NCBI RefSeq assembly: GCF_002001165.1
Contig: NZ_MUNQ01000006.1
Location: forward strand, 124,001-188,000
Length of the DNA: 64,000 nt
Origin: Rhodanobacter sp. C05
GTDB taxonomy: Bacteria > Pseudomonadota > Gammaproteobacteria > Xanthomonadales > Rhodanobacteraceae
Direction of reading: 5' to 3'
Under the pieces are notes generated by a model, which saw only the letters and a program-made list of their open reading frames with translations, did not search any database and had not been told where the DNA came from. The translations under genes and the position numbers were made by a program. The first letter of the stretch is position 1; each line of letters begins with the position of its first letter. Below, piece after piece: positions 6,008 through 29,127 of the stretch.

Positions 6008-6166
6008 AGTCGACCGCCTGCAGTCGCGCGCCAGTTCGCCCTGAGTGCCGGACTTGGCGTCCATTGCGCAGCGCCGGCTGCTAAGGTAGGTCTCGTCGGG
6101 AGCATGGGTAGCTACGGCTGCCGTACTCGCACGATGGGCACGTGGCCGCTTCAACCCGACGTCAAC

Positions 6167-6343: not shown

Positions 6344-6377
6344 GTCAACATGAATCTCACCGGCGAGGAGTTGACCG

Positions 6378-9920: not shown

Positions 9921-11351
9921 TCAGGGCGAGGGATGCCTGACCTGCTGTTGGCCATGTCCATAAAACAGTAACCCGATACCGATCAGCAGTGCCGAGCCTC
10001 CCACCACCTTGAGCAGGAACAGGCTTGGATTGCTGCTGTCGGCGGGCGGAATCATCGAGGTGACGATTGCCAGCAAGGTGACCGCGAAACCGGTCAGTGC
10101 GGCCAGCCAGCAGCCGAGGGTGCCGCCGGGCGACAGGTTGACGCCTTCATTGCGGCCGGCAGCGCGGCGGCGCAGCAGCGGAAACGCCAGCAGGATGTAG
10201 AGCAGGGGCAGCAGCGACATGATGGCGGTCATGTCGACCAGGATAATGTAGGCCTCGTGGATGCTTGAGCCGGACAGCGCCGCCGCCAGTACCAGCGAAG
10301 TCAGGATGCCCTGTGTGATCAAGGCCACATGGGGCGTGCCGTATCTGGGGTGCAGACGCCCCAGCGCGACGGGCAGGTAGCGATCGACGCCCACCACGAA
10401 GGGCAGGCGGGCTGTGCCTGTGACCCACGCGGAGATGGAGCCGATCGTGCCGACCGTAACCAGTGCCGCAGTCAGCGAGCCGAACATTGGCAGGCCGATC
10501 CGTTCGCCGATCGCGGACAGCGCCTGCGGGATGCCGGCGATGATGTCGATCGTCGACGCGGGCAGCGCGACCAGCAGGGATGCCGTGCCGGCGATATAGA
10601 TGGCCGCAATGACGACGCAGGAAATCAGCGTGGCGCGCGGAATCTGCCGGCGCGGGTCCTTGATTTCTCCACCTAGGATCAGCCCGAGTTCAAGACCCTG
10701 GAAGGCAAGGGCCATCGTCGCGAAGGTGGAGAAGGTCGCGAGCTTGCTGAAGTCAGGCAGCACGTTCGCCGTGGTGATCGCAGTGGCCGGACCGAACCGG
10801 TACGCGGCCACCGCGCCGGCAACGAGGATGAGTGCCGCCGCCGACCAGGTCGCGATGCCGCCGATGTTCTGCAGCCACTTGGCGCGTTCGAGACCGAGGA
10901 TGCCGAGCCCGGTCGCGGCCCATAGCACCGTCAGGCAGTAGACGAGGTTGTAGCTGCCGTCGCCGGCATGCGCCAGCCCGCGATCGCCGCCGACATGCAG
11001 AAAGATGCCGGCGCTGAACAGCAGCGCGAACGGGAAATAGACCAGGTTGGAGACCCAGTAAGTCCAGCCGGCGATGAAGCCATGCACGTCGCCGAACGCG
11101 GTCTTCGACCACAGGTACAGGCCGCCTTGTCCGGGCACGCGCGAACTCAGTTCGAGCACCGCCAGCGCCAGGGGAATGAAGAAGCCAACGAGTCCCAGAA
11201 GCCACAGCATCAGGCTCGAAGGCCCCACCTGCGCTGCCATCGACAGCCAACGCAGCGCGACGATCGCCGCGATGTTGAACAACACAAGATCTCGAGTGCC
11301 GAGCACACGATGCAGGCCAGGTTCATGCGTTGCTGCCGGCGTGGTGGTCAT
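9921..11351 (-). CDS. APC-superfamily amino-acid permease
   Basis: A 476-residue inner-membrane protein with about twelve hydrophobic helices. The N-terminus has the APC pattern HRVLGTRDLVLFNIAAIV (a broken first helix), followed by ELSSRVPGQGGLYLWSKTAFG and GWTYWVSNLVYFP, which resemble the glutamate/GABA antiporter and related groups. AFQGLELGLILGGEIKDPRRQIPRA is also family-typical (transmembrane 6 and the following loop). Substrate cannot be read from the sequence. It is alone on its strand; a REP-like palindrome lies upstream between it and the sugar transporter gene, so it is probably a separate unit. Confidence 0.85.
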   Translation of the reverse strand: MTTTPAATHEPGLHRVLGTRDLVLFNIAAIVALRWLSMAAQVGPSSLMLWLLGLVGFFIPLALAVLELSSRVPGQGGLYLWSKTAFGDVHGFIAGWTYWVSNLVYFPFALLFSAGIFLHVGGDRGLAHAGDGSYNLVYCLTVLWAATGLGILGLERAKWLQNIGGIATWSAAALILVAGAVAAYRFGPATAITTANVLPDFSKLATFSTFATMALAFQGLELGLILGGEIKDPRRQIPRATLISCVVIAAIYIAGTASLLVALPASTIDIIAGIPQALSAIGERIGLPMFGSLTAALVTVGTIGSISAWVTGTARLPFVVGVDRYLPVALGRLHPRYGTPHVALITQGILTSLVLAAALSGSSIHEAYIILVDMTAIMSLLPLLYILLAFPLLRRRAAGRNEGVNLSPGGTLGCWLAALTGFAVTLLAIVTSMIPPADSSNPSLFLLKVVGGSALLIGIGLLFYGHGQQQVRHPSP

Positions 11352-11616: not shown

Positions 11617-13062
11617 TCAGGCGGCGGCGTCTTCCGCTGCCTGCTTGCTGAAGCCGGTCGATGCAGCTGAGGGCTTGCTGCCGATCTCGCGCAGCGGCAG
11701 GCCGGCCATCAGGTTGCGTTCGATCTGTTCCAGGGAGACATTCTTCGTTTCCGGGATCAGCACGAAGGTGATCACCAGGAAGACGAGATTCAGCGCCGCA
11801 TACAGCCAGAACGTTGCAGCGTTGCCGATGCCGTTGAGCAGGGTCAGGAAGGTGGCGCCGACGATCATGTTGGCGACCCAGTTGGTGAAGGTCGAGCAAC
11901 CGATGCCGAAATCGCGGCCCTTCAGCGGCTGCACTTCCGAACACAGCGCCCAGATCAGCGGGCCGGCGGACATCGCAAAGCCGACGATGAAGGTCAGCAG
12001 CATGGCCACCGTGAAAATCTGCTCGCCGTGCGTGGCGATGCCCAGATGCATCATCGTGCCGACCAGGCCCAGGCCCACCGCCATCACGCTGAAGCCGGTG
12101 TACAGGATCGGCTTGCGGCCCCAGCGGTCGACCAGGCCGATCGCGATGAAGGTGGCCAGCACGTTGGTCAGGCCGACCACCGCGGTGAACCACATCTGTG
12201 CCGAGGTGGCGTAGCCCATGTCCTGGAAGATGCGCGGCGCGTAGTACATCACCACGTTCATGCCGGTGAACTGCTGCATCACCTGCAGCAGCACGCCCAG
12301 GCCGACCGAGCGACGGAAGTTGCGATTCTCCAGGAACAGGTGCCAGCCGCGTTGCGGCATCTTCAGCTGCTCCTCGATGTCGGCTACTTCACGCGCGACA
12401 TGGCCGGCATCGCCGCGCAACTTCTGCAGCACGTCGGTGGCCTCCTGTTTGCGACCGCGCATCATCAACCAGCGTGGGCTGTCCGGCAGCAGGAACAGGC
12501 CGAGCAGGAACAGGATGCCGGGAATCGCGATGATGCCCAGCATCCAGCGCCAGTTGCCGCTGTAGCTGAAGGCGGTATCGGACAGGAACGCCACCAGGAT
12601 GCCGATGGTGATCATCAGCTGGTACAAAGAGATCATCGCGCCGCGGATATGTTCCTCGGCCACCTCGGCCAGGTACAGCGGTGCGGTGAAGGTGGCCACA
12701 CCGATCGCCAGACCCAGGATCAGCCGCGCCGCGACCAGTGTCTGCGGCGACCATGCCATGCCGCTGAGCAGCGAACCGGCCACGAACAGCACGCCGCCGA
12801 GGATCAGCGAACGCTTGCGCCCCAGCGTCGCGGACATCCAGCCCGCGCCCAGTGCGCCGATCGCCGCGCCGAGCATCATCGAGCTGACGATCCACTCGAT
12901 CATGTGATCGGAGATCTGGAACTCTTTCTGGATGAACTGGGTGGCGCCGGAAATCACGCCGATGTCCAGGCCGAACATCAGGCCGGCAAGCGCGGCCAGC
13001 ATGCAGGTGAACAGGGCCGTGGTGCGGGACGGACGGAGCGGGGATGTCGCGACAGTATTCAT
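11617..13062 (-). CDS. Sugar:proton symporter, MFS sugar-porter family (GalP/XylE-like)
   Basis: A 481-residue twelve-helix transporter of the MFS sugar-porter family. Diagnostic motifs are present: FGLDIGVISGA in helix 1, GRKRSLILGG in the first loop, YLAEVAEEHIRGAMISLYQL, PDSPRWLMMRGR after helix 6, QQFTGMNVVMYYAP in helix 7, and a final PETKNVSLEQIE. The gene lies directly downstream of a galactose oxidation operon on the same strand (69 bp after the lactonase stop). Galactose is therefore the likely cargo, an inference from context, since xylose or arabinose transporters look the same at this level. Confidence 0.88.
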   Translation of the reverse strand: MNTVATSPLRPSRTTALFTCMLAALAGLMFGLDIGVISGATQFIQKEFQISDHMIEWIVSSMMLGAAIGALGAGWMSATLGRKRSLILGGVLFVAGSLLSGMAWSPQTLVAARLILGLAIGVATFTAPLYLAEVAEEHIRGAMISLYQLMITIGILVAFLSDTAFSYSGNWRWMLGIIAIPGILFLLGLFLLPDSPRWLMMRGRKQEATDVLQKLRGDAGHVAREVADIEEQLKMPQRGWHLFLENRNFRRSVGLGVLLQVMQQFTGMNVVMYYAPRIFQDMGYATSAQMWFTAVVGLTNVLATFIAIGLVDRWGRKPILYTGFSVMAVGLGLVGTMMHLGIATHGEQIFTVAMLLTFIVGFAMSAGPLIWALCSEVQPLKGRDFGIGCSTFTNWVANMIVGATFLTLLNGIGNAATFWLYAALNLVFLVITFVLIPETKNVSLEQIERNLMAGLPLREIGSKPSAASTGFSKQAAEDAAA

Positions 13063-13131
13063 GAAGGAAATCCTGCAGGCCGTGGATGGCGATGGGCGGT
13101 TGGATGAGCAGCGGTTTTCATGGAGTGATTC

Positions 13132-14034
13132 TCACGCCGGCATGCCGACGAAACGTGGCTCGGGCAGGCCGCGCACATCGAGCCGCGAACGGAACAGCGC
13201 GCCGGCGTGGACGTCGGCGTCCAGCTGCGCTGCGGACAGTCCATCGCGCGCGCTGGTGACATACAACGTGTCGAGATCGGGACCGCCGAAGGCGGGGCGG
13301 GTCGGCTGGCGCGCCGGCACCGGCAGCATCTGGCGCAGCGAGCCGTCAGCGGCATAGCAGACCACGCGAGCCAGGCCCCATTGCGCGTTCCACAGCGAAC
13401 CCTCGGCGTCGACACACGAGCCATCCGGTTCACCGGCAACATCGCCCAGGTCCGCAAACAATTGCGGTGTGCCCAGCGTGTCGCCGTACTCGCAGCGCTG
13501 GATGCAGCGTGCCGGCGAGTCGCAGTAGTACATCGTGGTGCCATCGGGACTGAAGGCGATGCTGTTGCTGATGGCCACCTTAGGCAGTGCGATCTGTTCC
13601 AGACCGAGGTCGGCATTGAGCCGCCAGAAACTGCCAAGTGCCTGCTTGCTGCCCTCGGCGGGCTCGTGCATCGTGCCGAACACGAAGCGGCCCTGGCGAT
13701 CGCAGGCGCCGTCGTTGCAGCGTGTCGGCAGGTCGGGTTCGATCTCGTGCAGTGTCTGCAGCTGGCCATCGGCGAGGCGGAAAAACGCCAATCGCGTGGT
13801 CAGCGCCAGCAGCAGCCAGCCATCGTTTTCGCATAGCGCGAACGAGGCGAGTCGCTCGGGCATCGGCCAGTGTTCCAACGCACCGCTGACAGGGTGCAGG
13901 CGGTACAGCGTGGCGTGCTGGATGTCGGTCCAGTACAGCGCCTGCGCTCGTTCGCACCAGACGATGCCTTCACCCAGGGTATTGCCGGCGTCCAGCGCAA
14001 CGTCCATCGGCGCCAGTACGGTCGGCACCGTCAT
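13132..14034 (-). CDS. SMP-30/gluconolactonase-family sugar lactonase (probable galactonolactonase)
   Basis: A 300-residue six-bladed propeller enzyme expected to open galactono-lactone to galactonate with a divalent metal. Metal and active-site stretches of the family are visible: NTLGEGIVWCERAQALYWTD (conserved Glu), RCNDGACDRQGRFVFGTM, SNSIAFSPDGTTMYYCDS, and GEPDGSCVDAEGSLWNAQWG (conserved Asp). ATG 14034 is chosen because it overlaps the stop of the upstream SDR gene by 4 nt (ATGA) and begins the family N-terminus; the open frame upstream is just the SDR gene out of frame. It works between the sugar dehydrogenase and DgoD. L-arabinonolactonase is the main alternative specificity. Confidence 0.85.
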   Translation of the reverse strand: MTVPTVLAPMDVALDAGNTLGEGIVWCERAQALYWTDIQHATLYRLHPVSGALEHWPMPERLASFALCENDGWLLLALTTRLAFFRLADGQLQTLHEIEPDLPTRCNDGACDRQGRFVFGTMHEPAEGSKQALGSFWRLNADLGLEQIALPKVAISNSIAFSPDGTTMYYCDSPARCIQRCEYGDTLGTPQLFADLGDVAGEPDGSCVDAEGSLWNAQWGLARVVCYAADGSLRQMLPVPARQPTRPAFGGPDLDTLYVTSARDGLSAAQLDADVHAGALFRSRLDVRGLPEPRFVGMPA

Positions 14035-14795
14035 ACCCAGCCGCCGTCCACGATGAAATCCTGTCCGGTACACATGCGGCTGTCGTCGGCAGCGAGGAAC
14101 AGGGCGGCGCGTGCCAGATCCTCGGCCATCAGGAAGCCGGGCATGCATTGCGTGCGCGCAATCTCCTCGCGACCGGCATCGTCCAGCCACAGGCGCACCT
14201 GCTTGTCGGTGATCACCCAACCCGGCACCAGACTGTTGATACGAATCTTCTGCTGGCCGAGTTCGCGCGCCATGCCGTTGACGAAGCCGTGTACGGCGGC
14301 CTTGGCCATCGCGTACAGCGGATAGCCTGCATTCTTTTTCATCCAGCCGGTGGAGCCCAGGCAGATGATCGAGCCGCCGCCGAGCTGACGCATGTCGGGA
14401 ATCACCGCCCGGGTGGTGAAGATCTGGTGACGCAGGTTCACCGCCACGTTGCGCTCGAAGTCGGCCGCGTCGATGTCGGCCAGTGCATGGCGTGCGTCGT
14501 TGGCCGCGTTGTTGACCAGCACGGCAATCGGTCCGATCTGCGCACGTGCCGCAACGATCGCAGCATGAAGCGCGTCAAGGTCGGTGAGATCACAATGCAG
14601 ATAGTGCGGTGCATGCGGCACGTCGGCGAGCGACGTACATAGCGACGCCGCGCTGGCATCGTCCACATCGAGAAACGCCACCCGCGCACCCTGGCGCGCG
14701 AAGCCTTCGACGAAGGCCGCGCCGATGCCGCTGGCGCCGCCGGTGATCAGCACGCTGCGACCGATCAGGCTGGGATAGCTGGCGAACGAAGGCAT
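14031..14795 (-). CDS. SDR-family sugar 1-dehydrogenase (probable D-galactose dehydrogenase)
   Basis: A 254-residue classical short-chain dehydrogenase. It has a Rossmann motif TGGASGIG near residues 18-25, an acidic Asp after strand 2 (FLDVDD) that favours NAD+, NNAAND near 95-100, catalytic Ser148, and the Tyr161/Lys165 pair in YPLYAMAKAA. It ends ...FIVDGGWV as usual for the family. Start ATG 14795 begins at the fold; upstream in-frame sequence is antisense to the dgoD tail. With a lactonase, DgoD, DgoA and DgoK in the same transcription unit it probably oxidises galactose to galactono-1,5-lactone, the first De Ley-Doudoroff step. Fucose or arabinose dehydrogenase activity cannot be excluded. 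Confidence 0.85.
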   Translation of the reverse strand: MPSFASYPSLIGRSVLITGGASGIGAAFVEGFARQGARVAFLDVDDASAASLCTSLADVPHAPHYLHCDLTDLDALHAAIVAARAQIGPIAVLVNNAANDARHALADIDAADFERNVAVNLRHQIFTTRAVIPDMRQLGGGSIICLGSTGWMKKNAGYPLYAMAKAAVHGFVNGMARELGQQKIRINSLVPGWVITDKQVRLWLDDAGREEIARTQCMPGFLMAEDLARAALFLAADDSRMCTGQDFIVDGGWV

Positions 14796-14826
14796 CAGCA
14801 GACTCCGGAATCGAGGGAAGGCATGC

Positions 14827-15975
14827 TCACCATTCGGCGACACTGCCATCGTCGTGGCGCCATAGCGGATTGCGCCAGCGATGACCGGCTTCGGCACGCT
14901 CGACGACGTAGGCTTCGTTGACCTCGATGCCGAGGCCGGGGCCACCGGGAATCGTGACGTAGCCATCTGCGTAGGCGAATACATTGCGGTCGACCACATA
15001 GTCGAGCAGGTCGTTGGCGGCGTTGTAATGGATGCCCAGGCTCTGTTCCTGGATGAAGGCGTTGTGGCACACCGCATCGAGCTGCAGATTCGCCGCCAGC
15101 GCGATCGGCCCAAGCGGACAGTGCAGCGCCAGCGCCACATCGTAGGCTTCCGCCATCGCGGCGATCTTGCGGGTTTCGGTGATGCCGCCGGCGTGCGAAG
15201 GGTCGGGCTGGATGATGTCGACGCCACCCATTTGCAGCACGCGCTTGAAGTCGTAACGCGTATACAGGCGCTCGCCCAGCGCGATCGGTGCCGGCGCGAT
15301 GCTGGCGAGTTCCGGAATCGCATCCAGATGCTCGGACAGCACCGGCTCCTCGATGAACATCAGCTTGTACGGCGCCAGTTCGCGCATCAGCACCTTGGCC
15401 ATCGGCTTGTGCACGCGGCCGTGGAAGTCGATGGCCAGGCCGATGTTCGGGCCAACCGCCTCGCGCACGGCCTGCACGTTCTCCAGCACACGCTCGACCT
15501 TGGCGTGGCTGTCGACGAAGTGCATCTCCTCGGTGCCATTCATCTTGACTGCGGTGAAGCCGCGTTCGACCGCGGCCTTGGCGGCCTTGGCCGTATCCGC
15601 CGGGCGGTCGCCACCGATCCACGAGTACACGCGAATGCGCTCGCGCACCGGGCCGCCGAGCAGCTCGTGCACCGGGACACCGAGATGCTTGCCCTTGATA
15701 TCCCATAGCGCCTGGTCGACGCCGGCGATCGCGCTCATCAGGATCGGGCCGCCGCGGTAGAAGCTGCCGCGGTACATCACGTTCCACAGATCCTCGATGT
15801 GGCGCGGATCCTTGCCAATCAGGTAATCGGAAAGTTCATCGACGGCGGTGGCCACGGTATGTGCGCGACCTTCCACCACCGGTTCGCCCCAGCCGCAGAT
15901 GCCGGCATCGGTGTCAATGCGCAGGAAACACCAGCGTGGTGGCACCAGGAACGTAGTGAGTTTGGTGATCTTCAT
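14827..15975 (-). CDS. dgoD: D-galactonate dehydratase
   Basis: Enolase-superfamily enzyme converting D-galactonate to 2-keto-3-deoxy-galactonate. The 382-residue product starts [15 protein letters not shown]. Its catalytic residues fall at the positions known for E. coli DgoD: Asp183 and His185 (AIDFHGRVH), Glu209 (FIEEPVL), Glu235 ([11 protein letters not shown]) and His285 (ALHCPLGP). ATG 15975 is chosen because it overlaps the dgoA stop by 4 nt; an in-frame start at 16014 adds an extension unlike the family. The conserved numbering makes galactonate a much better substrate guess than mannonate or gluconate. Confidence 0.95.
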
Positions 15976-16616
15976 GCACGGTGTTCCTTGGATTTTGGAG
16001 AGACAGCCGCCCATGCCTGTGCAAAGGCATGGGCGCGATGGGCGACTTCATCGGCATCGAGGCCGGGCGCATAGAGCGCGGAACCGATGCCGAACCCCTG
16101 CGCGCCAGCGGCAACCCATGGCGCCATGTTGTCGGGCGCGATGCCACCGACCGGCAGCACCGGTAGCTCTTTGGGCAGGACGGCACGCCAGGCCTTGAGT
16201 GCTTCAGGCGACACCTGGTCGGCGGGAAACAGCTTCAGGCCGTCGGCGCCAGCCGCCAGCGCAGCGAACGCTTCGGTGGGCGTGGCGACACCGGGCACGC
16301 AGACCATGCCGGCTTCCTTGGCTGCGCGGATCACGACGGTGTCGGCGTGTGGCATCACGATCAACCGGCCACCGGCGACGGCGACTTCTTTTACTTGTTC
16401 CGAGGTCATCACGGTGCCGGCGCCGATGAGATAGCTGTCGCCGAGAGACTGGGCGAGCCGACGAATGCTTTCCATCGGCTGCGGCGAGTTGAGCGGCACT
16501 TCCAGCACGCGAAAGCCGACATCAGCGAGCACGTGGCCGATGCTCACGGCTTCGTCGGGACGGATACCGCGCAGGATCGCGACGAGGGGCAGGGGATTGA
16601 GCCAGGAGCTCAGCAT
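15972..16616 (-). CDS. dgoA: 2-dehydro-3-deoxy-6-phosphogalactonate aldolase
   Basis: Class I aldolase of 214 residues that splits KDPGal into pyruvate and glyceraldehyde-3-phosphate. It begins [11 protein letters not shown], has the conserved Glu39 ([10 protein letters not shown]), and the Schiff-base Lys128 in [11 protein letters not shown], followed by the phosphate-binding GGIAPDNM and GFGIGSALY. Length is typical. ATG 16616 overlaps the 3' end of dgoK by 7 nt, and its stop overlaps the dgoD start by 4 nt, so translation of dgoK, dgoA and dgoD is probably coupled. Confidence 0.94.
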
Positions 16617-17554
16617 GAAGAAGTTTCCTTGGGCGCCGCGGACGAGTCGGTGCTGACCAGGCCGATATCGCAGGCAATCTGCCACAGCCCGTGCGCGGCG
16701 GCGTCCAGCAGGGAGTCGGCGAGATCGAGGTTGAAATGGGATGCGGCCAGTCGGTAACGCGCGCACAGCGCGGCATCGCCAATCAGTTGGAGCGGTGCGT
16801 CGTGGCGGAAACGATTCGTGGCAAGGCTGGAACGCAGCTCCTCACCGATCAGCAGGCCGGAGAGATATTCGGGCACCGCGTCCGGCGCCAGCGCACCGTC
16901 GAGCATCAAGGCGCGGGCGGAGAACAGCAGGCTGAATGCTCCCGCCGTGCCGCTGTCGCGTGCCGCGATGACACCGCGCGCAAACGCGTCGGTGTCCGCC
17001 GTGGCATCACCCGAGCCGGTGCATAGGATCGAATGCTGCCGTAGCAGCGCAAACAGTTCGCCCGTCATCAGGGTACGGAAATCGGCCACGGCGCCATCGC
17101 ACACGCGGGCCCACTTGCTGTGCGTGCCTGGCAGGATCCAGGTGGAATCGGAGATCAGCACCGGGTGCAAGGTAAGCGCGCCCAACAACTGGGTTTCCTC
17201 GCCGCGCATCACGTCGGGTCCTTGCGGGTTGCGCAGGCCGGGAACGATATGGACGTCCAAACCATCCTTCGCGCGCAGGCTGCGGACGGCGCTGCCGAGC
17301 TGCGCCGTGTCGGCGGGAAGGTCCATATACGGCACTTCCAGCCAGCCCTGGTGGCTGCCGACCATGCCGCAGGCCAGTCGGGGCAGCCGGGGCCAGTCCG
17401 CGGTGATATCAGTCAACGCAGCATCGAAGCCGCCATCCGGCAGATGGCGAATACCCCAGGGACGCGCCCGCGTTTCGCGGATTTCGCCAGCCTCATCGAG
17501 CCAGTAGGCGCGCAGGCTGGACGTACCCCAGTCGAGTCCGATCAAACCGCTCAT
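16610..17554 (-). CDS. dgoK: 2-dehydro-3-deoxygalactonokinase
   Basis: Kinase of 314 residues that phosphorylates 2-keto-3-deoxygalactonate with ATP before aldol cleavage. The N-terminal phosphate loop reads LIGLDWGTSSLRAYWLD. Further family stretches are GMVGSHQGWLEVPYMDLP, GEETQLLGAL, LPGTHSKWARV and MTGELFALLRQHS. ATG 17554 is used; the ATG eight codons earlier has no better ribosome site. It lies 46 bp downstream of the truncated beta-galactosidase and overlaps dgoA, so it belongs to one long minus-strand transcription unit running from GH42 to the GalP-like transporter. Confidence 0.93.
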   Translation of the reverse strand: MSGLIGLDWGTSSLRAYWLDEAGEIRETRARPWGIRHLPDGGFDAALTDITADWPRLPRLACGMVGSHQGWLEVPYMDLPADTAQLGSAVRSLRAKDGLDVHIVPGLRNPQGPDVMRGEETQLLGALTLHPVLISDSTWILPGTHSKWARVCDGAVADFRTLMTGELFALLRQHSILCTGSGDATADTDAFARGVIAARDSGTAGAFSLLFSARALMLDGALAPDAVPEYLSGLLIGEELRSSLATNRFRHDAPLQLIGDAALCARYRLAASHFNLDLADSLLDAAAHGLWQIACDIGLVSTDSSAAPKETSSC

Positions 17555-17600
17555 GGATTCAGGCTTTCCCCATGGCACACCGACATGGATGTTATGCGCA

Positions 17601-18345
17601 TCACGGCGTGGGGTCCTTCCAGATCAGCGTCTGCGCCGGAGCGAGTGGCACCTGGCCGTGCACGATCTTCGCGCTTGCCGGAAGCACGGGGGCAAACGGT
17701 TGCGGGTTGTAGTTCACCATCAAATCAAAGCCGCCGCGCCAGTCGATGAACACGCCCTTCGGCAGATCCTCGATCGCCACGTCCGCACGTTGATAGACGC
17801 TGCGCACAATCTCGCGTTCCAGTTCGCCATCATCGGTCGACACGCCAATCATGGTGACGCTGCCCTTGCCCAGCTTGCGGGTGGTCGCCGCCGCCTTGCC
17901 GGCGTAGTAATGATCGGCATACGTGGCGAGCACCTGGGTACCAGGGCGCGGCGTGAGTATGTCGGCCCAGCGGTGCCACTCGTACGTCTTCCCACCTGCA
18001 GCGACTTTCGCGCTGGCGTTTGACGGCAGCATGTCGAAGCCGTCGACATCGTCGCCGATCAGATCGAGGATCGGCGCATACCACGGGCCTTCATGGAACT
18101 GGCCGAGCTCATTCTTCTGACCGGTGCGGCTGGTCAGGATCAGGTGACCACCCTGTTCCACATAGCGCCGCCATTTGTCCGCCAGCTGCTGGCTGACCAT
18201 CTGGTAGGCCGGTGCGATCAGGAACGGATAGCGGTTGAAGTCATCGTCTTCCGCAACGAAATCCATCGGCGCGCCGGTACTCTTTATGGCCAACGTGTAG
18301 CCGTTGCGGTAGGACCAGCTGTTCCACAGCGTGGTTTGCGCCTCG
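17601..18345 (-). pseudogene. C-terminal part of a GH42 beta-galactosidase, 5' half lost
   Basis: About 245 residues remain. They match the trimerisation and C-terminal domains of GH42 enzymes: DFNRYPFLIAPAYQMVS, YVEQGGHLILTSRTGQ (the GH42M pattern), EWHRWADILTPRPGTQVLATY, GKGSVTMIGV, and a short C-terminal beta domain ending in LIWKDPTP. The catalytic TIM barrel with both glutamates is missing. The minus-strand frame remains open beyond 18345, but there it is simply antisense to the TonB receptor. The gene would have headed the galactose operon and released galactose from beta-galactosides. As it stands it cannot be a glycosidase. The break lies near 18320-18360, exactly where the facing receptor also starts abruptly. 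Confidence 0.82.
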
Positions 18346-18347
18346 AC

Positions 18348-20423
18348 GACACCATCGATCGCGTCGAAGCCGTGCAGGGCGGCACCTCGGTGCTCTACGG
18401 CAACGGCCAGCCCGGTCTGATCGCCAATTTCATTCTGAAGGAAGGTTCCTCGACGCCTGGAGGCGACATTGGCGTGACCTACGGCTCGGAAGGCATGGAG
18501 CGGCTGGACGGCTTCTACGGCTTCCCGATCGGCGGCAAGGATAGCGGCTGGTATGGCAGCGTGGGTGGCTTCTGGCGCAAGTCCGACGGTGTGCGCGATC
18601 CGCAGTTCGCCTCGGACAAGGGCGGTCAGCTCACCGCCACGCTCAGCCACGATCTGGAACATGGTTCGCTGATGTTCTACGCGCGCGACCTGAAGGACAA
18701 GAACCAATGGGTCACCGACACGCCGATCTACAATCCGTCCGCGGGCAAGTTCTCGCCCTATCCGGGTTTCAGCCCGCTCACCGGCACCTTCGGCAGCAAC
18801 GCCGACCGCTACCAGTTCCTGCAGACCACGCCCTGCTTCACCAGCGGCTGTACGCCTGGCGGGCAAAACATCGACATGGCCAACGGCCAGGGCGGTGACA
18901 TGCACGTGGTCGGCGCCAACCTCGACCTGGATTTCGACAATGGCTGGTCGCTCTCCGACAAGGCCATCCTTGTCGGCGGCGACATGGACACCACGGCGTT
19001 TTTCAGCACCGGCGCCAACCCGACCTCGCTGGGCGAGTACATCACCAGCTCCGTCTCCGGCTTCGGCCTGCCCTCCGGCGGCACCGCCACGGCGGTCTAC
19101 ACCAACAACGGCAAGCCGGCGGACTTGAACCAGAACGTCACGGTGCAGAATCCTGAGTACATCCACAAGCGCATCCACTCGCTCAGCAACGAGTTCCGGT
19201 TGAGCAAGGAAATCTTCGACGGCAACACGCTGACCTTCGGCAACTACACCGCGGTGTACGGCATGGACCACTCCGAAGACGATGGCCTCAACATGCTGTT
19301 GCAGGCGAAGAACAACCCGACCCCGATCGCGGTGGACTACACCGTCGGCGGCAACGTCTACCAGCTCACCGACAAGCAGGGCCTGTTCTGGGCTCCGGGT
19401 CCGGCGTCGTGGATGGCGTTCAACGAGGATTGGCACGCCACCACCACGGCGTTCTACCTCGCCGACGAGTGGACGGTGGGCAAGTGGCGGTTCGACGGCG
19501 GCGTGCGCTGGCAGCACGACAATATCGGCGGCAACTTCCAGAACACCGCGTCGGGCGATCTCGACGCGAACCCGAACACCGTCTACAACAACAACGCCGA
19601 GTACCTGATCGACAGCTGGACCCATTACGGCCAGAACCGCGGTGCGGCGTCGTGGACACTGGGCGCCAACTATGCGCTGGCCGACAATATGAGCATGTAC
19701 GGCCGCGTCAACAACGGCGCGTTCCTGCCCAGCTTCGACGACATCGTGAACCTCGGCAATCCGCCGACCGAGCACATCCACAACTACGAGATAGGCTTCA
19801 AGTATCAGGCCTCGTGGATCTACGCGGATATCGGTGCGTACCATCGCCAGTTCATCGGCGTGCCGTATTCCATCCAGCTGAGCACGGGGCTGGTCAGCCT
19901 CGTCTATGGTTCGATGACCAATGGCGTCAACGCACAGGTGATGCTCAAGCCGTTCGAGCGCTTCTCCGTTGCGCTCAGCGGCAACTACATGCACGGCCAT
20001 TACAACCGCTACGCGGGCTGCGTGACGTATCAGGCGCAGGACGGCAGTTACCTATGCAGCAGCATCTCCGGCATGACGGTGGATCGCCAGCCCGAGATCC
20101 AGTACCGCGTGACGCCAGCCTACGAAGTGCCAACCAGCTGGGGCAGCCTGAAGTTCTGGGCCACCTACGAGCACATCGGCAACCGCTTCAGCGATCAGCT
20201 GATGCAGCAGCCGATGGGCAGCTATTACGACGTGAGCTTCGGTGCCAACGCCAACATCGGCGAGAACTGGATGCTGAGTCTGCGCGGCACCAATATGACC
20301 AACCAGATTGGCATCACCGAGGGCAATGCCCGCCTGTTCGGCTTTGCCAGCAGCGGCGGGGTGATTCTCGCCCGCTCGATCGAGGGGCGTGAAGTCAACT
20401 TCCAGGTCAAGTACAAGTTCTGA
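18348..20423 (+). pseudogene. TonB-dependent receptor lacking signal peptide and most of its plug domain
   Basis: The recognisable receptor starts mid-plug at TIDRVEAVQGGTSVLYGNG, the conserved end of the TonB-plug domain. It then runs through an entire 22-strand-type barrel (LIANFILKEGSSTPGG, YARDLKDKNQWVTDTP, WTLGANYALADNMSMYGRV) to a correct C-terminus VKYKF. The signal peptide, TonB box and most of the plug are missing. An in-frame ATG at 18093 exists, but the sequence between it and 18348 is antisense to GH42, so it would add an unrelated N-terminus. The partner gene downstream is a GH63 glycosidase. The intact receptor was probably an oligosaccharide importer; this copy should not reach the outer membrane. 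Confidence 0.8.
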
Positions 20424-20531: not shown

Positions 20532-22556
20532 ATGCGCCAACCCGTCAAACTCCTGATCATCGCTGCGACTATCGCGGTTAGTCTTGGTGGCGTGGGCGCA
20601 TGGGCTGAGCCAGTCAACCATCAGGCCGCTACCAGCTATCTCGATGTACTCGACCTGCATGGTGCGCCGCAGACACCGACGGATCGAAGCTTCAACATCT
20701 TTTTCGACGCTGGGTCGTGGCATGGCTACAGCCTGCCGGTTGCCGGCGATCTAGCGACAGGCTTTTCAGGCCCCTTCGTGCACAGTCTTGGCGATGGCCA
20801 ATGGGTCGGCGCACGCTTCGCGCAGTTGGCACTACGCGATACCACCAACAAGCAGCGCATCACTCTGAGCCCGATCGATAGCCACGCGGCGCCGGGCTAT
20901 CTGGTACGCCAGTTTTTCGGCCCAAACCTGACCGTGCGTCAGACCTTGTTCTTTGCCGATTCCTGGCATGCCTTGGTGCGGATCGAACTCAATGCGACAA
21001 CATCGCAAGACGTGGATCTTTCCGTTGCCGGGCGCGTGATGCCCCAGCAGCAGGCGGGACTGGTCAAGGACGGCGATACAGTGGCGCAAACCTTCGCCAA
21101 CTCGAACTCGAAGCTGACCACGCGGCTTCATGCTGACGGCACTCCCATTTACCGGGTCACGCTGTCGGGAGCCGACTATCGCATCGCCCTGGACCAGCCC
21201 CTGCATCTGAAGCCGGATCAGACGGCGACAATCTTTGTCGAGCAAACCCTGGTTTACGACGTCCATGCCGACAAGCCAACGCCCGTCGATGTCGCTACGG
21301 CCTGGACGCAAAATCGCGCACGCTGGGATAACTATCTGAAGTTCGTGATATCAAGCCGCCTTGCCGGTCTTCCCGACGAGGTCGCACGACGGGTTTCCGT
21401 CAAGGCCATGCTGACCTTGCTGGGCAACTGGCGAGCGGCGCGTGGCGACCTGCATCACGACGGTGTCATCCCCTCGTATTCCAACCCCGACTTCAACGGA
21501 TTCTGGGCCTGGGATTCGTGGAAGCATGCAGCGGCGCTGGCGCAGTTCGCGCCGGAGCTCGCGCGCTATCAAATGCGCGCGATGTTCGACTATCAGGCCG
21601 CCGACGGCATGGTTCCGGATTGCATCTATCTCGACAAGGCGGGCAACAACTGGCGCGACACCAAGCCTCCGCTGGCGGTGTGGGCAGCGCTGGAAATCTA
21701 CCGAGCCACCGGCGACAAAGCCTTTCTGGCCGAGATGTACGACAAGCTGGTGCGCTATCACCGCTGGTGGTTCACGACGCGTGATCACGACCACGACGGC
21801 ATGGCCGAATATGGTTCGACCGACGGCACCAAGGTTGCCGCCAAGTGGGAAAGCGGCATGGACAACGGCGTTCGCTTTGACGCCATCACCATGCTCAAGA
21901 ACGGCAATAACGCCTGGTCGATGGATCAGGCGTCGGCCGATCTCAATGCCTACCTGTACAAGGAAAAACTTGATCTGGCGCAGGTCGCGGCCATCCTCGG
22001 CAAAACCCAGGATCATGCGCAGTGGCTGAAAGAGGCCGCGACGATGAAGACCGTCGTTCAGATACACATGTTCGACAAGACGCGCGGTTACTTCTTCGAT
22101 ACCAAACTGGGCAGCGGCGATCCCGTGCGCGTTTATGGTTCGGAAGGCTGGACGCCGCTGTGGGCTGGCGTGGCAAGCCCCGATCAGGCCAAGTCCGTGA
22201 TCCGGGTCATGCTTGATCCGAGCAAGTTCGCCACCTTCATGCCACTCCCCACACTGGCCGCCGACGACCCGCACTTTTCGCCGATCAAGGGTTATTGGCG
22301 CGGTCCGGTATGGCTCGATCAAGCCTATTTCGGTGTGGAAGCCCTCAGGAATTACGGCTATGCCCAGCAGGCCGACGAGATGGCGCGCCGTCTGGTACTC
22401 AACGCCAAGGGTCTGACGAAGCAGGCGCCCATGTATGAGAACTACGACCCGTTGACCGGTCAGGGTTATCAATCACCCAATTTCAGCTGGGCTGCCGCCA
22501 GCTATCTACTGTTGTTGCAGAAGAGGGAGCGTAACGGCCTCGATCTCACCCCCTGA
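20532..22556 (+). CDS. Exported GH63-family glycoside hydrolase
   Basis: A 674-residue protein beginning with a signal peptide (MRQPVKLLIIAATIAVSLGG, cleavage near AWAEP), so probably periplasmic. ATG 20532 has AAGGA upstream; the in-frame region before it has no support. The catalytic (alpha/alpha)6 part matches GH63 alpha-glucosidase-like enzymes: GVIPSYSNPDFNGFWAWDSWKHAAALAQF (acid-containing WDSWKH), KWESGMDNGVRFD, and near the end IKGYWRGPVWLDQAYFGVEAL with the typical NYDPLTGQG. An N-terminal beta-sandwich precedes it. It follows the truncated TonB receptor by about 110 bp on the same strand, so it was probably expressed with it. Exact glycoside specificity (glucosylglycerate, kojibiose, mannosyl-glucose types) cannot be read here. 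Confidence 0.82.
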   Translation: MRQPVKLLIIAATIAVSLGGVGAWAEPVNHQAATSYLDVLDLHGAPQTPTDRSFNIFFDAGSWHGYSLPVAGDLATGFSGPFVHSLGDGQWVGARFAQLALRDTTNKQRITLSPIDSHAAPGYLVRQFFGPNLTVRQTLFFADSWHALVRIELNATTSQDVDLSVAGRVMPQQQAGLVKDGDTVAQTFANSNSKLTTRLHADGTPIYRVTLSGADYRIALDQPLHLKPDQTATIFVEQTLVYDVHADKPTPVDVATAWTQNRARWDNYLKFVISSRLAGLPDEVARRVSVKAMLTLLGNWRAARGDLHHDGVIPSYSNPDFNGFWAWDSWKHAAALAQFAPELARYQMRAMFDYQAADGMVPDCIYLDKAGNNWRDTKPPLAVWAALEIYRATGDKAFLAEMYDKLVRYHRWWFTTRDHDHDGMAEYGSTDGTKVAAKWESGMDNGVRFDAITMLKNGNNAWSMDQASADLNAYLYKEKLDLAQVAAILGKTQDHAQWLKEAATMKTVVQIHMFDKTRGYFFDTKLGSGDPVRVYGSEGWTPLWAGVASPDQAKSVIRVMLDPSKFATFMPLPTLAADDPHFSPIKGYWRGPVWLDQAYFGVEALRNYGYAQQADEMARRLVLNAKGLTKQAPMYENYDPLTGQGYQSPNFSWAAASYLLLLQKRERNGLDLTP

Positions 22557-22662: not shown

Positions 22663-24147
22663 TCATCCGGAGTGTCGCCTCAAGGGCAACGATTCCATTG
22701 ACGTACAGATCATTTTTGCGTCTGTCGCATCCAGGCATGTGCCGAACAATTGGGCAGCCTCCTGCAGCTCCAGACTGGACAGTCCGCAGTAGCCAAGAAG
22801 AAGGCCAGGTGTGGCGGGTCTTGCATGGTAGTGCGGCGCTATCGGGTACAGTCCGAGTCCGCGCTCATGCGCGTAATCGATCAGAGCCTCCAGTTGTGTG
22901 TGGTCGTAATCGCGCAACCAGACCACCACATGCATGCCGGCATGCGAATCAGCAATCTGGATACGCTCACCGGCATAACGTCGCAGCCCATTGATCAGCA
23001 CTTCGCGGCGCGCCTTGAGCGTTCTCCCCATTTGCCGCAGATGTCGCTCAAAGCCTCCGCTCTCCATGAAGTGCGCCAGGGCGGCCTGCTCAATCACGGG
23101 ATTGCAAATATCAGCCAGATATTTGGCGTTGATGAAATCCTGACGCAGTGCTGCTGGCAACACCATGTAGCCCAGACGCATCGAGCCGAACAACGTCTTG
23201 GAAAACGTACCCACGTAGATCACGCGGTCGGCATCGTCGAGCGAGCGCAATGCTGCCAGAGGTTGGGAGTCGAAGCGAAACTCGCTGTCATAGTCGTCCT
23301 CCAGAATCCAGCTTTGTCTTGCTTCGGCATAGCGCAACAGCTCCAGGCGTCGTGACAACGACATGGTCGGTCCGGAAGGGAACTGATGAGAAGGCGTAAC
23401 ACAGATCAGGCGGGGTGCTTGCATCGGCAACTCGGCGCATACCAAGCCTTCGCGATCCGTGCGCACGGGTAGCAGATTGGCCCCGTGCGCAGCGAATGAT
23501 TGCCACATGCCGAAGTAATGCGGTTCCTCCATGACAGCGGCGTCTCCTTCGTTCAGCAGGACACGCGCGGTCAAGGCATAGGCTTGTTGTGCACCATTGA
23601 TGATGAGCACGTGGTTCGGATGCGCATCAACACCGCGCCGAAGCGCCAGATAGCGACAAATCTGCTCACGCAAGGCAAACAGTCCTTGCGGGTCTCCCCG
23701 TTCAAGCGGGGTGTAGACCGCAGCGTGAGCGAGTTCACGGGCCCAGATGGTACTCAACGCCGGTTGGGTCATCGGTTCGCCATATTGCATATTCAGACGC
23801 AGCCCGTGATGGCGGCGCGTAAGCAATGGATCTCTCTGCGTTCTCGCACGCTTTGCGTAGCGCGACGGTGCCGCGATGGGCTCCCCTTTCAGTAAGCGAA
23901 GTGGTGGAGAGGCTTGCAAGTTGCTGACGTAGCTGCCAGCGCCAACCCGGACATATACGAAGCCTTCGGCGCGAAGTTGTTCATAAGCCGCCAATGCGGT
24001 GATGCGCGACATGCCGACTTCCTGGGCAAGTGCGCGGGTGGACGGAAGGCGCGTATTGGCTTTCAATCGCCCGTTGAGAATGGAAGCTTTCAAGGCACGG
24101 GTAAGTTGTGCGTAAGCCGGCCCTTGGCCATCGAATTCGAGGAACAT
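22663..24147 (-). CDS. MocR/PdxR-type GntR regulator (first paralogue)
   Basis: A 494-residue chimeric regulator. The N-terminal GntR winged helix runs through LKASILNGRLKANTRLPSTR and GMSRITALAAYEQLRAEG. After a linker comes a fold-type-I aminotransferase domain that binds PLP: IINGAQQAYALTARVLLNEGD, EEPHYFG, SHQFPSGPTMS, ILEDDYDSEFR, and the PLP lysine in YVGTFSKTLFGSMRLGYMVLP. Proteins of this class are usually activators or autorepressors sensing PLP or an amino-group ligand; the target is unknown. A close paralogue lies 3.5 kb away, and a CadC-like gene and a small exported protein lie between them. Confidence 0.88.
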   Translation of the reverse strand: MFLEFDGQGPAYAQLTRALKASILNGRLKANTRLPSTRALAQEVGMSRITALAAYEQLRAEGFVYVRVGAGSYVSNLQASPPLRLLKGEPIAAPSRYAKRARTQRDPLLTRRHHGLRLNMQYGEPMTQPALSTIWARELAHAAVYTPLERGDPQGLFALREQICRYLALRRGVDAHPNHVLIINGAQQAYALTARVLLNEGDAAVMEEPHYFGMWQSFAAHGANLLPVRTDREGLVCAELPMQAPRLICVTPSHQFPSGPTMSLSRRLELLRYAEARQSWILEDDYDSEFRFDSQPLAALRSLDDADRVIYVGTFSKTLFGSMRLGYMVLPAALRQDFINAKYLADICNPVIEQAALAHFMESGGFERHLRQMGRTLKARREVLINGLRRYAGERIQIADSHAGMHVVVWLRDYDHTQLEALIDYAHERGLGLYPIAPHYHARPATPGLLLGYCGLSSLELQEAAQLFGTCLDATDAKMICTSMESLPLRRHSG

Positions 24148-27606: not shown

Positions 27607-29127
27607 TCAAAGCGACCGTGCTGAGTCGCCGCAATATTCGAGTGCCGCGCGTGGCGCGTTAAAAGCTTGCTTCGGGTTGTGCCTTCGCGCGATCGCGTCA
27701 ATCGCATCCAGGCATTCGCCAAACAATTGCGTGGCATCGCGCAGCTGTGCATTGGACAGTCCGCAATAGCCGAGCATGAGGCCCGGCACGACCGGGCGTT
27801 CGTTGTAGTGGGGTGCTATGGAATGCAGACCCAGTCCGCGTTCGCACGCAAGGGTTATCAGTGCATCGATCTGTGCATGGTTGTAGTCGGGTAGCCAGAC
27901 GACGACATGCATGCCAGCATGGGTTCCCCCGATCTCCACGCGTTCGCCGGCATGGCGGTGCAGGCCTTCGATCAGCTCCCTGCGACGTGACCGCAATTCT
28001 CTCGTTATGTATCGAAGATGGCGTTCAAATCCGCCGTCCTCCATGAAGTGTGCCAGCGCTGCCTGCTCGATCGTCGGACAGCCACGGTCGTCAAGACATT
28101 TTGCGTTGACGAAATCATCGCGAAGCGCCTGTGGCAAGACCATATAGCCAAGCCTGAGCGCGCCAAACATCACCTTGGAGAGGGTTCCGACATAGATCAC
28201 CCGGTCGCGATTATCAAGCGAATGCAGGGTCGCCAATGGCTGTGAGTCGTAGCGGAGCTCGCTGTCGTAGTCATCTTCGACAATCCAGCATGGCGCTTTA
28301 TCCGCATAACTCAGAAGCTCGATTCGGCGTGTCAATGACAGAACCGCGCCGGATGGAAATTGATGGGAGGGGGTGACAAGCACAAGACGTGGTGCCACTG
28401 CCGGCAATTCGCTGCAGAGCAACCCTTCGTTGTCGGACCGGATCGGAAGCAGGCGTGCACCATGTGCGCTGAACTGCTGCGAAGCGCCCCAGTAATGAGG
28501 CTCTTCGATGGCTACGGTATCTCCTTCGTTGATCAGCACACGTGCGGTCAACGCGATGGCTTGCTCGGTGCCGCTGACGATCAGCACACGATCAACGGAA
28601 GTCTGTATGCCGCGTCGCAATGAAAGGTAGCTGCAGACCTGTTCACGCAAGGCCAACAGTCCCTGATCAGCGCCGTAACCAAGCGGACTTTGGGTTGCGG
28701 CCCGGGACAGCTCCCGTGCCCAGATGGCACTGAGTGATGGGTTGATATGCGAGGATCCGTATTGCATGTCAAAGCGCACGCCGCGATGTCGTTCCGCAAT
28801 CGACAGACCTTGGAACTGTCGCGCTCGCTCCGCGTATCGCGATTGTGCCGTTATGCTGGTTGTGCCGACCTGAGACTGAGGCATGGTCTCGATCGGTAGT
28901 GCGTTGACGTAGCTCCCGGAGCCCACTTGACCATCGATATAGCCGTCCGTACGCAATTGCTCGTAAGCGGCGAGCGCCGTGATGCGTGAACAACCCAGTT
29001 CCAGAGCCAGCTCACGCGTGGACGGTAGCCGTGCATGCGCCGCAAGACGCCCACTGAGGATGGCTGCCCTCAAGGCACGAATCAGTTGCCTGTACTGCGG
29101 GCCCTGTCCATCAAGTTCGAGAAACAT
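27607..29127 (-). CDS. MocR/PdxR-type GntR regulator (second paralogue)
   Basis: A 506-residue protein with the same layout as the regulator ending at 22663: GntR winged helix (LSGRLAAHARLPSTRELALE, CSRITALAAYEQLRTDG) and PLP-binding aminotransferase-like domain (VSGTEQAIALTARVLINEGD, VEDDYDSELRYDSQPLATL, and the lysine in YVGTLSKVMFGALRLGYMVLP). The two share long identical blocks at the N-terminus and around the PLP site, pointing to a duplication. Its C-terminal 30 residues (after LFGECLDAIDAI) diverge. It is convergent with the CadC-like gene. Target and ligand are unknown. Confidence 0.87.
   Translation of the reverse strand: MFLELDGQGPQYRQLIRALRAAILSGRLAAHARLPSTRELALELGCSRITALAAYEQLRTDGYIDGQVGSGSYVNALPIETMPQSQVGTTSITAQSRYAERARQFQGLSIAERHRGVRFDMQYGSSHINPSLSAIWARELSRAATQSPLGYGADQGLLALREQVCSYLSLRRGIQTSVDRVLIVSGTEQAIALTARVLINEGDTVAIEEPHYWGASQQFSAHGARLLPIRSDNEGLLCSELPAVAPRLVLVTPSHQFPSGAVLSLTRRIELLSYADKAPCWIVEDDYDSELRYDSQPLATLHSLDNRDRVIYVGTLSKVMFGALRLGYMVLPQALRDDFVNAKCLDDRGCPTIEQAALAHFMEDGGFERHLRYITRELRSRRRELIEGLHRHAGERVEIGGTHAGMHVVVWLPDYNHAQIDALITLACERGLGLHSIAPHYNERPVVPGLMLGYCGLSNAQLRDATQLFGECLDAIDAIARRHNPKQAFNAPRAALEYCGDSARSL

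What the first reader, a model, noticed from the sequence alone, without database searches (positions are those of the whole stretch)
17601..20423. One deletion appears to have decapitated two divergent genes (GH42 and a TonB receptor)
On the minus strand only the C-terminal third of a GH42 beta-galactosidase remains. On the plus strand only a receptor lacking its signal peptide and most of its plug remains. Both families break at about 18320-18360, head to head. A single deletion of roughly 2-3 kb in a divergent gene pair, removing both 5' ends and the shared promoter, explains this simply. It would cut the outer-membrane uptake and first hydrolysis step from an otherwise intact galactose operon (11617-17554) and also remove that operon's promoter. 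An assembly collapse is the main alternative.
Basis: partly seen in the sequence, partly recalled or inferred. Interest (0 to 1): 0.62.

Follow-up and report, generated by a model that had tools for sequence, protein, structure and literature searches.

The report
Deletion in a collagen-sugar digestion cluster
One deletion of about 5.7 thousand bases cut the front off two genes and removed three more from a gene cluster that soil bacteria may use to eat the sugar-decorated hydroxylysine of collagen; the cluster, apparently undescribed, is the more interesting find.

Summary
At window 18339-18340 a GH42 beta-galactosidase gene and a TonB receptor gene, both without 5' ends, are joined directly. 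In 23 named Rhodanobacteraceae loci GH42 is full or nearly full length, and the receptor's N-terminus is present in all 22 that reach it. The deletion is 5.5-7.9 kb by reference (5672 bases against G016), not 2-3 kb, and the two genes are not a divergent pair: a GntR/FCD regulator, a class III PLP enzyme and an APH-type kinase lay between them. That segment was not found elsewhere in the genome. Neither fragment shows relaxed selection, so the event is recent.

The PLP enzyme is nearest to human ethanolamine-phosphate phospho-lyase. Its neighbours are a YgjK-type alpha-glucosidase, the beta-galactosidase, often an amino-acid permease and a galactose operon. In Flavobacteriaceae, three-domain kinase-lyase genes have YgjK, GH2 or hydroxyproline-type neighbours in 42 of 63 loci, against 0 of 37 for a two-domain type. 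Best reading: a pathway for collagen's glucosyl-galactosyl-hydroxylysine, disabled in this strain. No function was tested, and within the window's own genus hydroxyproline-type genes do not co-occur with the locus.

The parts
17601..18340 (-). GH42 beta-galactosidase, 3' fragment (residues 474-718 of 718; trimerisation domain only)
   Evidence: PF08532 1.8e-43; 89-93% identity to the C-terminus of the gene in 5 other same-genus genomes
18339..18340 (.). Deletion joint; 2 bases shared by both ancestral sides
18339..20423 (+). TonB-dependent receptor, 3' fragment (about residues 164-855 of 855); signal peptide and most of the plug missing
   Evidence: PF00593 9.7e-18; the intact homologue also has PF07715; 98% identity to G016 and G007
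20532..22556 (+). YgjK-type (GH63) alpha-glucosidase, intact frame, downstream of the receptor
16610..17554 (-). dgoK, 2-keto-3-deoxygalactonokinase
   Evidence: PF05035 2.9e-88
15972..16616 (-). dgoA, 2-dehydro-3-deoxy-6-phosphogalactonate aldolase
   Evidence: NF006600 297.5 bits, over cut-off 207
14827..15975 (-). dgoD, galactonate dehydratase
   Evidence: NF010624 689.1 bits, over cut-off 311
14031..14795 (-). SDR oxidoreductase (inferred galactose dehydrogenase; no family search was run on this ORF)
   Evidence: ORF; conserved in order in the dgo-bearing relatives
13132..14034 (-). SMP-30-type lactonase
   Evidence: PF08450 2.5e-73
11617..13062 (-). MFS sugar porter
   Evidence: TIGR00879 439.7 bits, over cut-off 237.8
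9921..11351 (-). Amino-acid permease at the end of the cluster
   Evidence: PF13520 7.4e-48; found at 17 of 23 related loci

Best explanation
SHOWN: the sequence of a single recent deletion of about 5.7 kb, with only 2 shared bases at the joint. It removed the receptor's signal peptide and most of its plug, a GntR/FCD regulator, a class III PLP phospho-lyase homologue, an APH-type kinase and the whole GH42 catalytic domain.
INFERRED: the intact locus takes up and dismantles glucosyl-galactosyl-hydroxylysine (Glc-alpha1,2-Gal-beta-O-Hyl) from collagen. The TonB receptor would bring the glycosyl-amino acid or glycopeptide into the periplasm. The YgjK-type enzyme would release glucose and GH42 galactose. 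The permease and MFS porter would carry hydroxylysine and galactose inwards. The kinase would phosphorylate the hydroxylysine 5-OH. The PLP enzyme would eliminate phosphate and ammonia to give 2-aminoadipate semialdehyde. The SDR, lactonase, DgoD, DgoK and DgoA would burn the galactose.
In this strain the pathway would be blocked at uptake, galactose release and hydroxylysine breakdown. The orphaned dgo operon and YgjK gene have lost their normal upstream sequences. Confidence is about 0.92 for a real deletion and about 0.6 for the collagen substrate; the figure given is for the whole statement.
For: Deletion: two main blocks of synteny in 5 of 5 same-genus relatives. GH42 covers at least residues 39-714 of 718 in 23 of 23 Rhodanobacteraceae loci, and receptor residue 1 is present in 22 of 22 that reach it (five of these loci are the same contigs as the five genomes). 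The segment was not found in G000, while the same query rings in 4 of 4 relatives. The lyase is at 87-94% identity in 4 relatives, but G000 has only paralogues at 29-33%. Recency: window-only changes are N=1, S=8 in GH42 and N=0, S=7 in the receptor.
Pathway: the lyase's best solved relative is human ethanolamine-phosphate phospho-lyase, 7e-144, then a bacterial phospholyase, 1e-98; the next is 3e-54. The glucosidase is YgjK-like, 4e-88, and PDB 3w7w is a YgjK mutant holding the free disaccharide 2-O-alpha-glucosyl-galactose, the linkage of the collagen glycan (PMC8537180 table passage). Kinase, lyase and GH42 are together in 23 of 23 loci and YgjK in 18 of 23, the other five ending before or close to its expected place; an amino-acid permease is in 17 of 23. 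Flavobacterium laiguense has YgjK, GH42 and fused kinase-lyase between 4-hydroxyproline epimerase (590.9 bits, cut-off 376) and pyrroline-2-carboxylate reductase (379.2, cut-off 322), with M24 and DPPIV-type peptidases. Three-domain genes of that family: YgjK 23/63, GH2 24/63, proline-racemase family 21/63, galK 7/63, against 0/37 two-domain genes for each. With L185, L188 (marker source) and one uninformative control removed, 40/61 against 0/36 carry any marker.
Against: No enzyme or substrate was tested. The phospho-lyase family also includes phosphoethanolamine enzymes, and no hydroxylysine-specific homologue was available for comparison. In Gammaproteobacteria the lyase occurs without GH42 or YgjK at 18 of 18 loci. 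In the genus, proline-racemase-family genes (E <= 1e-90) are in 2 of 6 locus-bearing genomes and 9 of 30 others, so there is no co-occurrence with hydroxyproline use there. The tree puts the Rhodanobacteraceae lyase with the collagen-linked clade at only 82% SH-aLRT, and three Gammaproteobacterial lyases without GH42 or YgjK neighbours fall in the same group. 21 of 63 three-domain loci have no marker neighbour, and relatedness was not corrected for. GH42 enzymes act on many beta-galactosides (recalled). No reads confirm the joint.
Confidence: 0.56

Rival explanations
1. The deletion is real, but the locus serves a different galactoside: a plant or microbial beta-galactoside, or another galactosylated amino-alcohol such as an ethanolamine conjugate. 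The kinase and lyase would then act on phosphoethanolamine or an unknown amine.
For: The lyase's closest solved relative is the ethanolamine-phosphate enzyme. The same lyase occurs without GH42 or YgjK at 18 of 18 Gammaproteobacterial loci. There is no co-occurrence with proline-racemase-family genes in the genus. GH42 family membership does not fix the substrate.
Against: The three-domain kinase-lyase is near proline-racemase-family (21/63), YgjK (23/63) and GH2 (24/63) genes in Flavobacteriaceae, and 0/37 of the two-domain controls are. A YgjK mutant has been crystallised with the free disaccharide of the collagen linkage. An amino-acid permease is part of 17 of 23 loci.
Confidence: 0.33
2. 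The joint is an assembly artefact: sequence between the two genes was dropped or misjoined in a draft genome and the strain has the intact locus.
For: The genome is a 30-contig draft. Neither fragment shows decay. No reads are available.
Against: The joint is inside a 459-kb contig, with 2 shared bases. The 5.7-kb segment was found on no contig of a 99.97% complete assembly. Assemblers do not normally join on 2 bases (recalled).
Confidence: 0.08
3. The deletion made useful hybrid genes: the 776-residue plus-strand frame (18093-20423) and the 799-residue minus-strand frame (17601-20000) that cross the joint are new proteins.
For: Both frames are open across the joint.
Against: Each hybrid front is the antisense of the other gene. 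Long antisense frames already exist in the intact relative: 574 residues opposite GH42 and 460 opposite the receptor. The plus-strand hybrid lacks the plug and the minus-strand one the catalytic domain. No promoter-like site was found in 17400-18800 (weak test).
Confidence: 0.02
4. One reading: a 2-3 kb deletion in an adjacent divergent GH42-receptor pair that shared a promoter.
For: The two genes are transcribed away from the joint.
Against: 5540-7940 bases are missing against 12 fetched regions of 7 distinct relatives, and other genes lie between the two at every locus that covers both.
Confidence: 0.01

Closest known systems
Mammalian hydroxylysine kinase and 5-phosphohydroxylysine / phosphoethanolamine ammonio-phospholyases (Veiga-da-Cunha et al. 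2012; only its title was seen, in the reference list of PMC8154272; not held; content recalled)
   Same: Kinase of the APH fold plus class III PLP phospho-lyase; bacterial fused forms were noted there (recalled).
   Different: Here the pair sits in a TonB/alpha-glucosidase/beta-galactosidase cluster that would supply the amino acid from a glycoside.
E. coli YgjK, GH63 alpha-glucosidase (PDB 3w7w and others)
   Same: Match over nearly the whole length: Foldseek E about 1e-36, VIA Z 27-28 over 583-589 residues.
   Different: 26-29% identity only; the E. coli gene's surroundings were not examined here.
Collagen glucosidase PGGHG (GH65, EC 3.2.1.107; passages of PMC8537180 and PMC11012932)
   Same: Acts on Glc-alpha1,2-Gal-Hyl.
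   Different: Different glycoside hydrolase family (GH65 against GH63), animal enzyme.
De Ley-Doudoroff galactose operons (dgoDKA; pathway recalled)
   Same: dgoD and dgoA pass curated cut-offs and DGOK matches Pfam.
   Different: An optional attachment downstream of GH42: dgoK in 15 of 23 loci.
Glycan utilisation loci with TonB receptors (recalled)
   Same: Receptor, glycosidases, transporter and regulator together.
   Different: Adds an amino-acid permease and an amino-alcohol kinase-lyase, as expected for a glycosyl-amino acid.
5-hydroxylysine breakdown through lysine pathways in Pseudomonas fluorescens (Friede and Henderson 1976, cited in PMC12930750, passage)
   Same: Bacterial use of hydroxylysine.
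   Different: Monooxygenase and racemase routes, no kinase-lyase.

Membership tests
GH42 beta-galactosidase (functional) | Catalytic domain PF02449 with acid/base and nucleophile Glu | tested here: not met
   Window fragment: PF08532 and no PF02449; the genome's one PF02449 hit is elsewhere. Met in the intact relative.
TonB-dependent receptor (functional) | Signal peptide and complete plug domain before the barrel | tested here: not met
   Window fragment: no PF07715, starts at about residue 164; plug met in the relative. Signal peptide judged by eye.
AGXT2L-type ammonio-phospholyase (deleted gene, read in relatives) | Closer to phospho-lyases than to transaminases | tested here: met
   6tor 483 bits and 5g4i 334 bits, best other 188 bits.
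AGXT2L-type ammonio-phospholyase | Acts on 5-phosphohydroxylysine rather than phosphoethanolamine | not testable with these tools
   No hydroxylysine-specific homologue was among the solved relatives shown (best 60 of 131); enzyme assay needed.
Hydroxylysine kinase (deleted gene, read in relatives) | APH/choline-kinase fold | tested here: met
   PF01636 9.1e-28; model pLDDT 88, top match homoserine kinase 2ppq; aminopropanol kinase 6ef6 at rank 13.
Hydroxylysine kinase | Phosphorylates the 5-OH of hydroxylysine | not testable with these tools
   No sequence-close solved relative (0 hits; profile: 2ppq only).
YgjK-type GH63 | Match to YgjK over N-domain and barrel | tested here: met
   the model barrel is of low confidence (mean pLDDT 66).
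Collagen-glycan catabolic locus (proposed) | alpha-glucosidase + beta-galactosidase + kinase + phospho-lyase together | tested here: met
   Kinase, lyase and GH42 in 23 of 23 loci, YgjK in 18 of 23; the other five loci end before or close to its expected place. Flavobacteriaceae loci with GH2.
Collagen-glycan catabolic locus (proposed) | Linkage to hydroxyproline or collagen-peptide genes | tested here: inconclusive
   Seen in Flavobacteriaceae: 21/63 proline-racemase family. Not seen in the genus of the window: 2 of 6 against 9 of 30 genomes.
De Ley-Doudoroff operon | dgoD, dgoK, dgoA present and intact | tested here: met
   frames open and dN/dS near the range among relatives, one dgoK pair slightly above it (0.283 against 0.256).

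The most novel reading that the evidence does not exclude
Soil Rhodanobacteraceae and many Flavobacteriaceae carry a dedicated pathway for glucosyl-galactosyl-hydroxylysine, the unusual O-glycan of collagen. It consists of a GH63 alpha-glucosidase, a beta-galactosidase (GH42 or GH2), a hydroxylysine kinase and a 5-phosphohydroxylysine lyase, with galactose burnt by De Ley-Doudoroff genes in many Rhodanobacteraceae and by Leloir genes in some Flavobacteriaceae: different parts assembled to the same end. The window strain is a natural null mutant of it.
Probability: 0.57. Interest if true: 0.72.

Novelty: new variant of a known kind. Interest (0 to 1): 0.52.

Why it matters
The deletion alone is ordinary strain-level gene loss. 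Its value is that it points at a locus whose parts fit together best if a glycosylated amino acid is the substrate. [quoted passage not shown] No bacterial catabolic locus for their hydroxylysine glycans appeared in the listings of 10 full-text searches (open-licence PMC papers only; one search was about YgjK). [quoted passage not shown] The hypothesis can be tested with four enzymes, and it would give a function to part of a protein family whose NCBI models are named 'hypothetical protein' and 'aminotransferase' (PRK06148, PRK06149).

Tried and rejected
Assembly collapse: rejected as main explanation. Homology-driven deletion: the 11-base near-match at the joint (8 of 11, counted) scores P = 0.028 in one ad hoc +1/-1 test; I do not treat this as evidence. 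Decay of the fragments as a clock: no relaxation found, which gives only 'recent'. The regulator as a galactonate regulator (DgoR): not supported; its NCBIfam matches are all below cut-off, and it is also present at loci where no dgo genes were found, L062, L064, L069 and L075. A second GH42 in the genome: the only PF02449 hit is a GH35 enzyme. Two partial GH2-family matches (29.3 and 24.9 bits, over the cut-off of 21) also exist elsewhere, so other galactosidases may be present. A YgjK structure model was made but its barrel is poor, so I use it only for the match list. Promoter and terminator scan: 0 promoter-like sites (0.4 expected) and 1 terminator-like site (0.8 expected) in 17400-18800, uninformative. 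Hydroxyproline-type co-occurrence in the genus was looked for and not found.

Limits of counts: two searches scored 40 of the candidate places per genome; one search scored at most 4 and search 52 at most 3 per genome. Rows dropped: the lyase tree kept 8 of 23 Rhodanobacteraceae rows and 127 of 142 in all. Neighbourhood counts use 63 of 70 three-domain hits (7 not fetched) and all 37 two-domain hits other than L076 itself; some stretches are shorter than 20 kb because contigs end. L116 is in the two-domain count although it lies on a 4-kb contig and is sister to L076; without it the control is 36. 'Three-domain' was assigned from frame length and match range; the M23 domain was seen by Pfam in the 2 proteins scanned. 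Some markers came from L188; one search leaves out L188 and L185. The glucosidase alignment used 11 sequences after L066 (internal stop), L067 and L075 were left out. Loci L046 to L052 were fetched and not analysed; L047 to L052 hold more distant receptor homologues from genomes without a GH42 match.
Full report
WHAT WAS CLAIMED.

WHAT IS THERE. The window is bases 124001-188000 of contig 24 (459,248 bases) in a 30-contig, 4.25-Mb draft of 99.97% completeness. The minus-strand fragment matches the GH42 trimerisation domain and not the catalytic domain; the plus-strand fragment matches only the TonB barrel. The window keeps GH42 residues 474-718 and receptor residues from about 164.

THE JOINT. 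Window 11-24.5 kb maps to each of five same-genus genomes in two main blocks which meet at window 18336-18346. Base by base, the left block follows GH42 to 18340 and the right block follows the receptor from 18339; the two bases are shared. The missing stretch is 5672 bases against G016, 5878 against G007, 5649 against Rhodanobacter sp. C01, and 5540 to 7940 over the 7 distinct relatives measured.

WHAT WAS LOST. Between the two breakpoints G016 carries a GntR/FCD regulator, a class III PLP enzyme and an APH-type kinase, besides the two gene fronts. A search of the window's genome with the 5675-base segment gives nothing; the same query matches 4 of 4 other genomes. The PLP enzyme has relatives at 87-94% identity in 4 genomes besides its source but only paralogues at 29-33%, five in all, in the window's genome.

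CONSERVATION. A scan of named genomes gave 24 loci, 23 of them in Rhodanobacteraceae by their names (records of the window's own genome may be left out there, and five loci repeat the five genomes above). In these 23, GH42 is covered from residue 39 or earlier to 714 or later; kinase and PLP enzyme are present in 23 of 23; the receptor's first residue in 22 of 22 that reach that far; the regulator in 19 of 22; YgjK in 18 of 23, the rest ending before or close to its expected place; dgoK follows GH42 in 15 of 23. An amino-acid permease is at the far end in 17 of 23, directly after GH42 in L062, L065 and L075, where no dgo genes were found (L065 is a 6.7-kb contig). So the core is receptor, YgjK, PLP enzyme, kinase and GH42, usually with regulator and permease; the galactose operon is optional.

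AGE. Against seven relatives, changes unique to the window are 1 nonsynonymous to 8 synonymous in the GH42 fragment and 0 to 7 in the receptor fragment. Pairwise dN/dS of 0.09-0.19 and 0.07-0.25 lies in, or for GH42 just above, the range among the intact genes (0.03-0.17 and 0.06-0.29). The dgo genes also look constrained, though dgoK has 3 to 5 and one pair slightly above the range. The deletion is therefore recent relative to the divergence of these species.

WHAT THE LOCUS PROBABLY DOES. The PLP enzyme's best solved relative is human ethanolamine-phosphate phospho-lyase (E 7e-144), next a bacterial phospholyase (1e-98), then 3e-54 or weaker. The kinase has the APH fold. This pair in animals degrades hydroxylysine or phosphoethanolamine (recalled; only the paper's title was seen). 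The glucosidase is YgjK-like, and a solved YgjK mutant complex holds 2-O-alpha-D-glucopyranosyl-alpha-D-galactopyranose, the free sugar of the Glc-alpha1,2-Gal linkage of collagen hydroxylysine (PMC8537180, table passage; the review PMC11012932 prints beta-Glc in its abstract and alpha in its section 6.5). Glucosidase, galactosidase, galactose genes, amino-acid permease and phospho-amine lyase together fit Glc-Gal-Hyl.

INDEPENDENT TEST. The one non-Rhodanobacteraceae locus, in Flavobacterium laiguense (L076), has YgjK, GH42 and a fused kinase-lyase flanked by 4-hydroxyproline epimerase and pyrroline-2-carboxylate reductase (both over curated cut-offs), a trans-3-hydroxyproline-dehydratase-like and a D-amino-acid-dehydrogenase-like protein (both below cut-off), two M24 peptidases and a DPPIV-type peptidase. 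In 299 genomes of that family the fused gene is found in 108, as a two-domain type of about 760 residues (38, L076 included) and a three-domain type of about 1010 residues (70, some frames incomplete). With markers taken only from L076 and the Rhodanobacteraceae, YgjK lies near 10 of 23 three-domain genes and 0 of 37 two-domain genes (Fisher 1.5e-5). With 63 three-domain loci: YgjK 23, GH2 24, proline-racemase family 21, D-amino-acid-dehydrogenase type 21, P2C reductase type 10, M24 9, galM 9, galK 7, galT 5, DPPIV 4, GH42 0; all 0 of 37 in the two-domain type. One locus, L188, runs galM, YgjK, GH2, GH27, kinase-M23-lyase, GH2, galK, galT, M24, M24. The same logic thus appears with different galactosidase and galactose-pathway families; that L076 has GH42 leaves room for transfer as well as convergence.

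RESULTS AGAINST. Of 369 Gammaproteobacterial genomes, 15 have the lyase at E <= 1e-90 and none of 18 loci has GH42 or YgjK near. Proline-racemase-family genes at E <= 1e-90 are in 2 of 6 locus-bearing and 9 of 30 other genomes of the genus. The Rhodanobacteraceae lyases group with L076, L116 and the three-domain clade, apart from 36 two-domain rows, at only 82% SH-aLRT, together with three Gammaproteobacterial rows that lack GH42 or YgjK neighbours. 21 of 63 three-domain loci have no marker. Relatedness of the Flavobacteriaceae genomes was not corrected for in the Fisher tests. No enzyme was tested.

CONSEQUENCE IN THIS STRAIN. Inferred: uptake, galactose release and hydroxylysine breakdown are lost; glucosidase, permease and galactose genes remain, but the galactose operon and the glucosidase gene have lost the upstream regions that relatives have. 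The genome keeps a GH35 beta-galactosidase elsewhere and two partial GH2-family matches, so galactoside use in general need not be lost.

VERDICT. Observation confirmed; mechanism (one deletion) supported; size and layout corrected; the biological setting reinterpreted as a probable collagen-glycan locus, with the chemistry unproven.

Noticed in passing
window 18093-20423 (+) and 17601-20000 (-): Both strands are open across the joint (776 and 799 codons) because long antisense frames already lie opposite each gene; automatic annotation could report either hybrid as a gene.
   Followed up: yes
window 18363-20420 against L053, L054, L058, L059: The receptor barrel is less diverged from the window (dS 0.12-0.17) than most other cluster genes measured in the same species (0.17-0.58), and dS is 0.69-0.78 against L055-L057: exchange of receptor alleles between species is likely.
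   Followed up: partly
L053 MFS gene; L057 SDR and SMP-30 genes: Parts of the galactose operon are divergent in single species (74% MFS in L053; 75% SDR and 65% SMP-30 in L057).
   Followed up: no
L116, L145-L180: A two-domain kinase-lyase fusion of about 760 residues in Flavobacteriaceae has none of the sugar or hydroxyproline-type neighbours (0 of 37); its substrate is unknown.
   Followed up: partly
L188 8034-11063, L185 9537-12602: An M23 (murein-type) peptidase domain sits between kinase and lyase in the three-domain protein; its role in amino-acid breakdown is unexplained.
   Followed up: no
G003 contig 17, 127556-138547 (L009, L010): One intact relative has two further, distant proteins matching the GH42 C-terminal part about 62-70 kb from the locus (34% and 27% identity).
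   Followed up: no
window 22663-24147 and 27607-29127: Two similar ORFs of the MocR type lie close together; the first matches PdxR over its cut-off, the second was judged only by its similar start.
   Followed up: no
L041 75-1646: An ORF with a metallopeptidase-like HEIGHSW motif (recalled motif, no family search) lies beyond the YgjK gene in the relative; possibly part of peptide supply.
   Followed up: no
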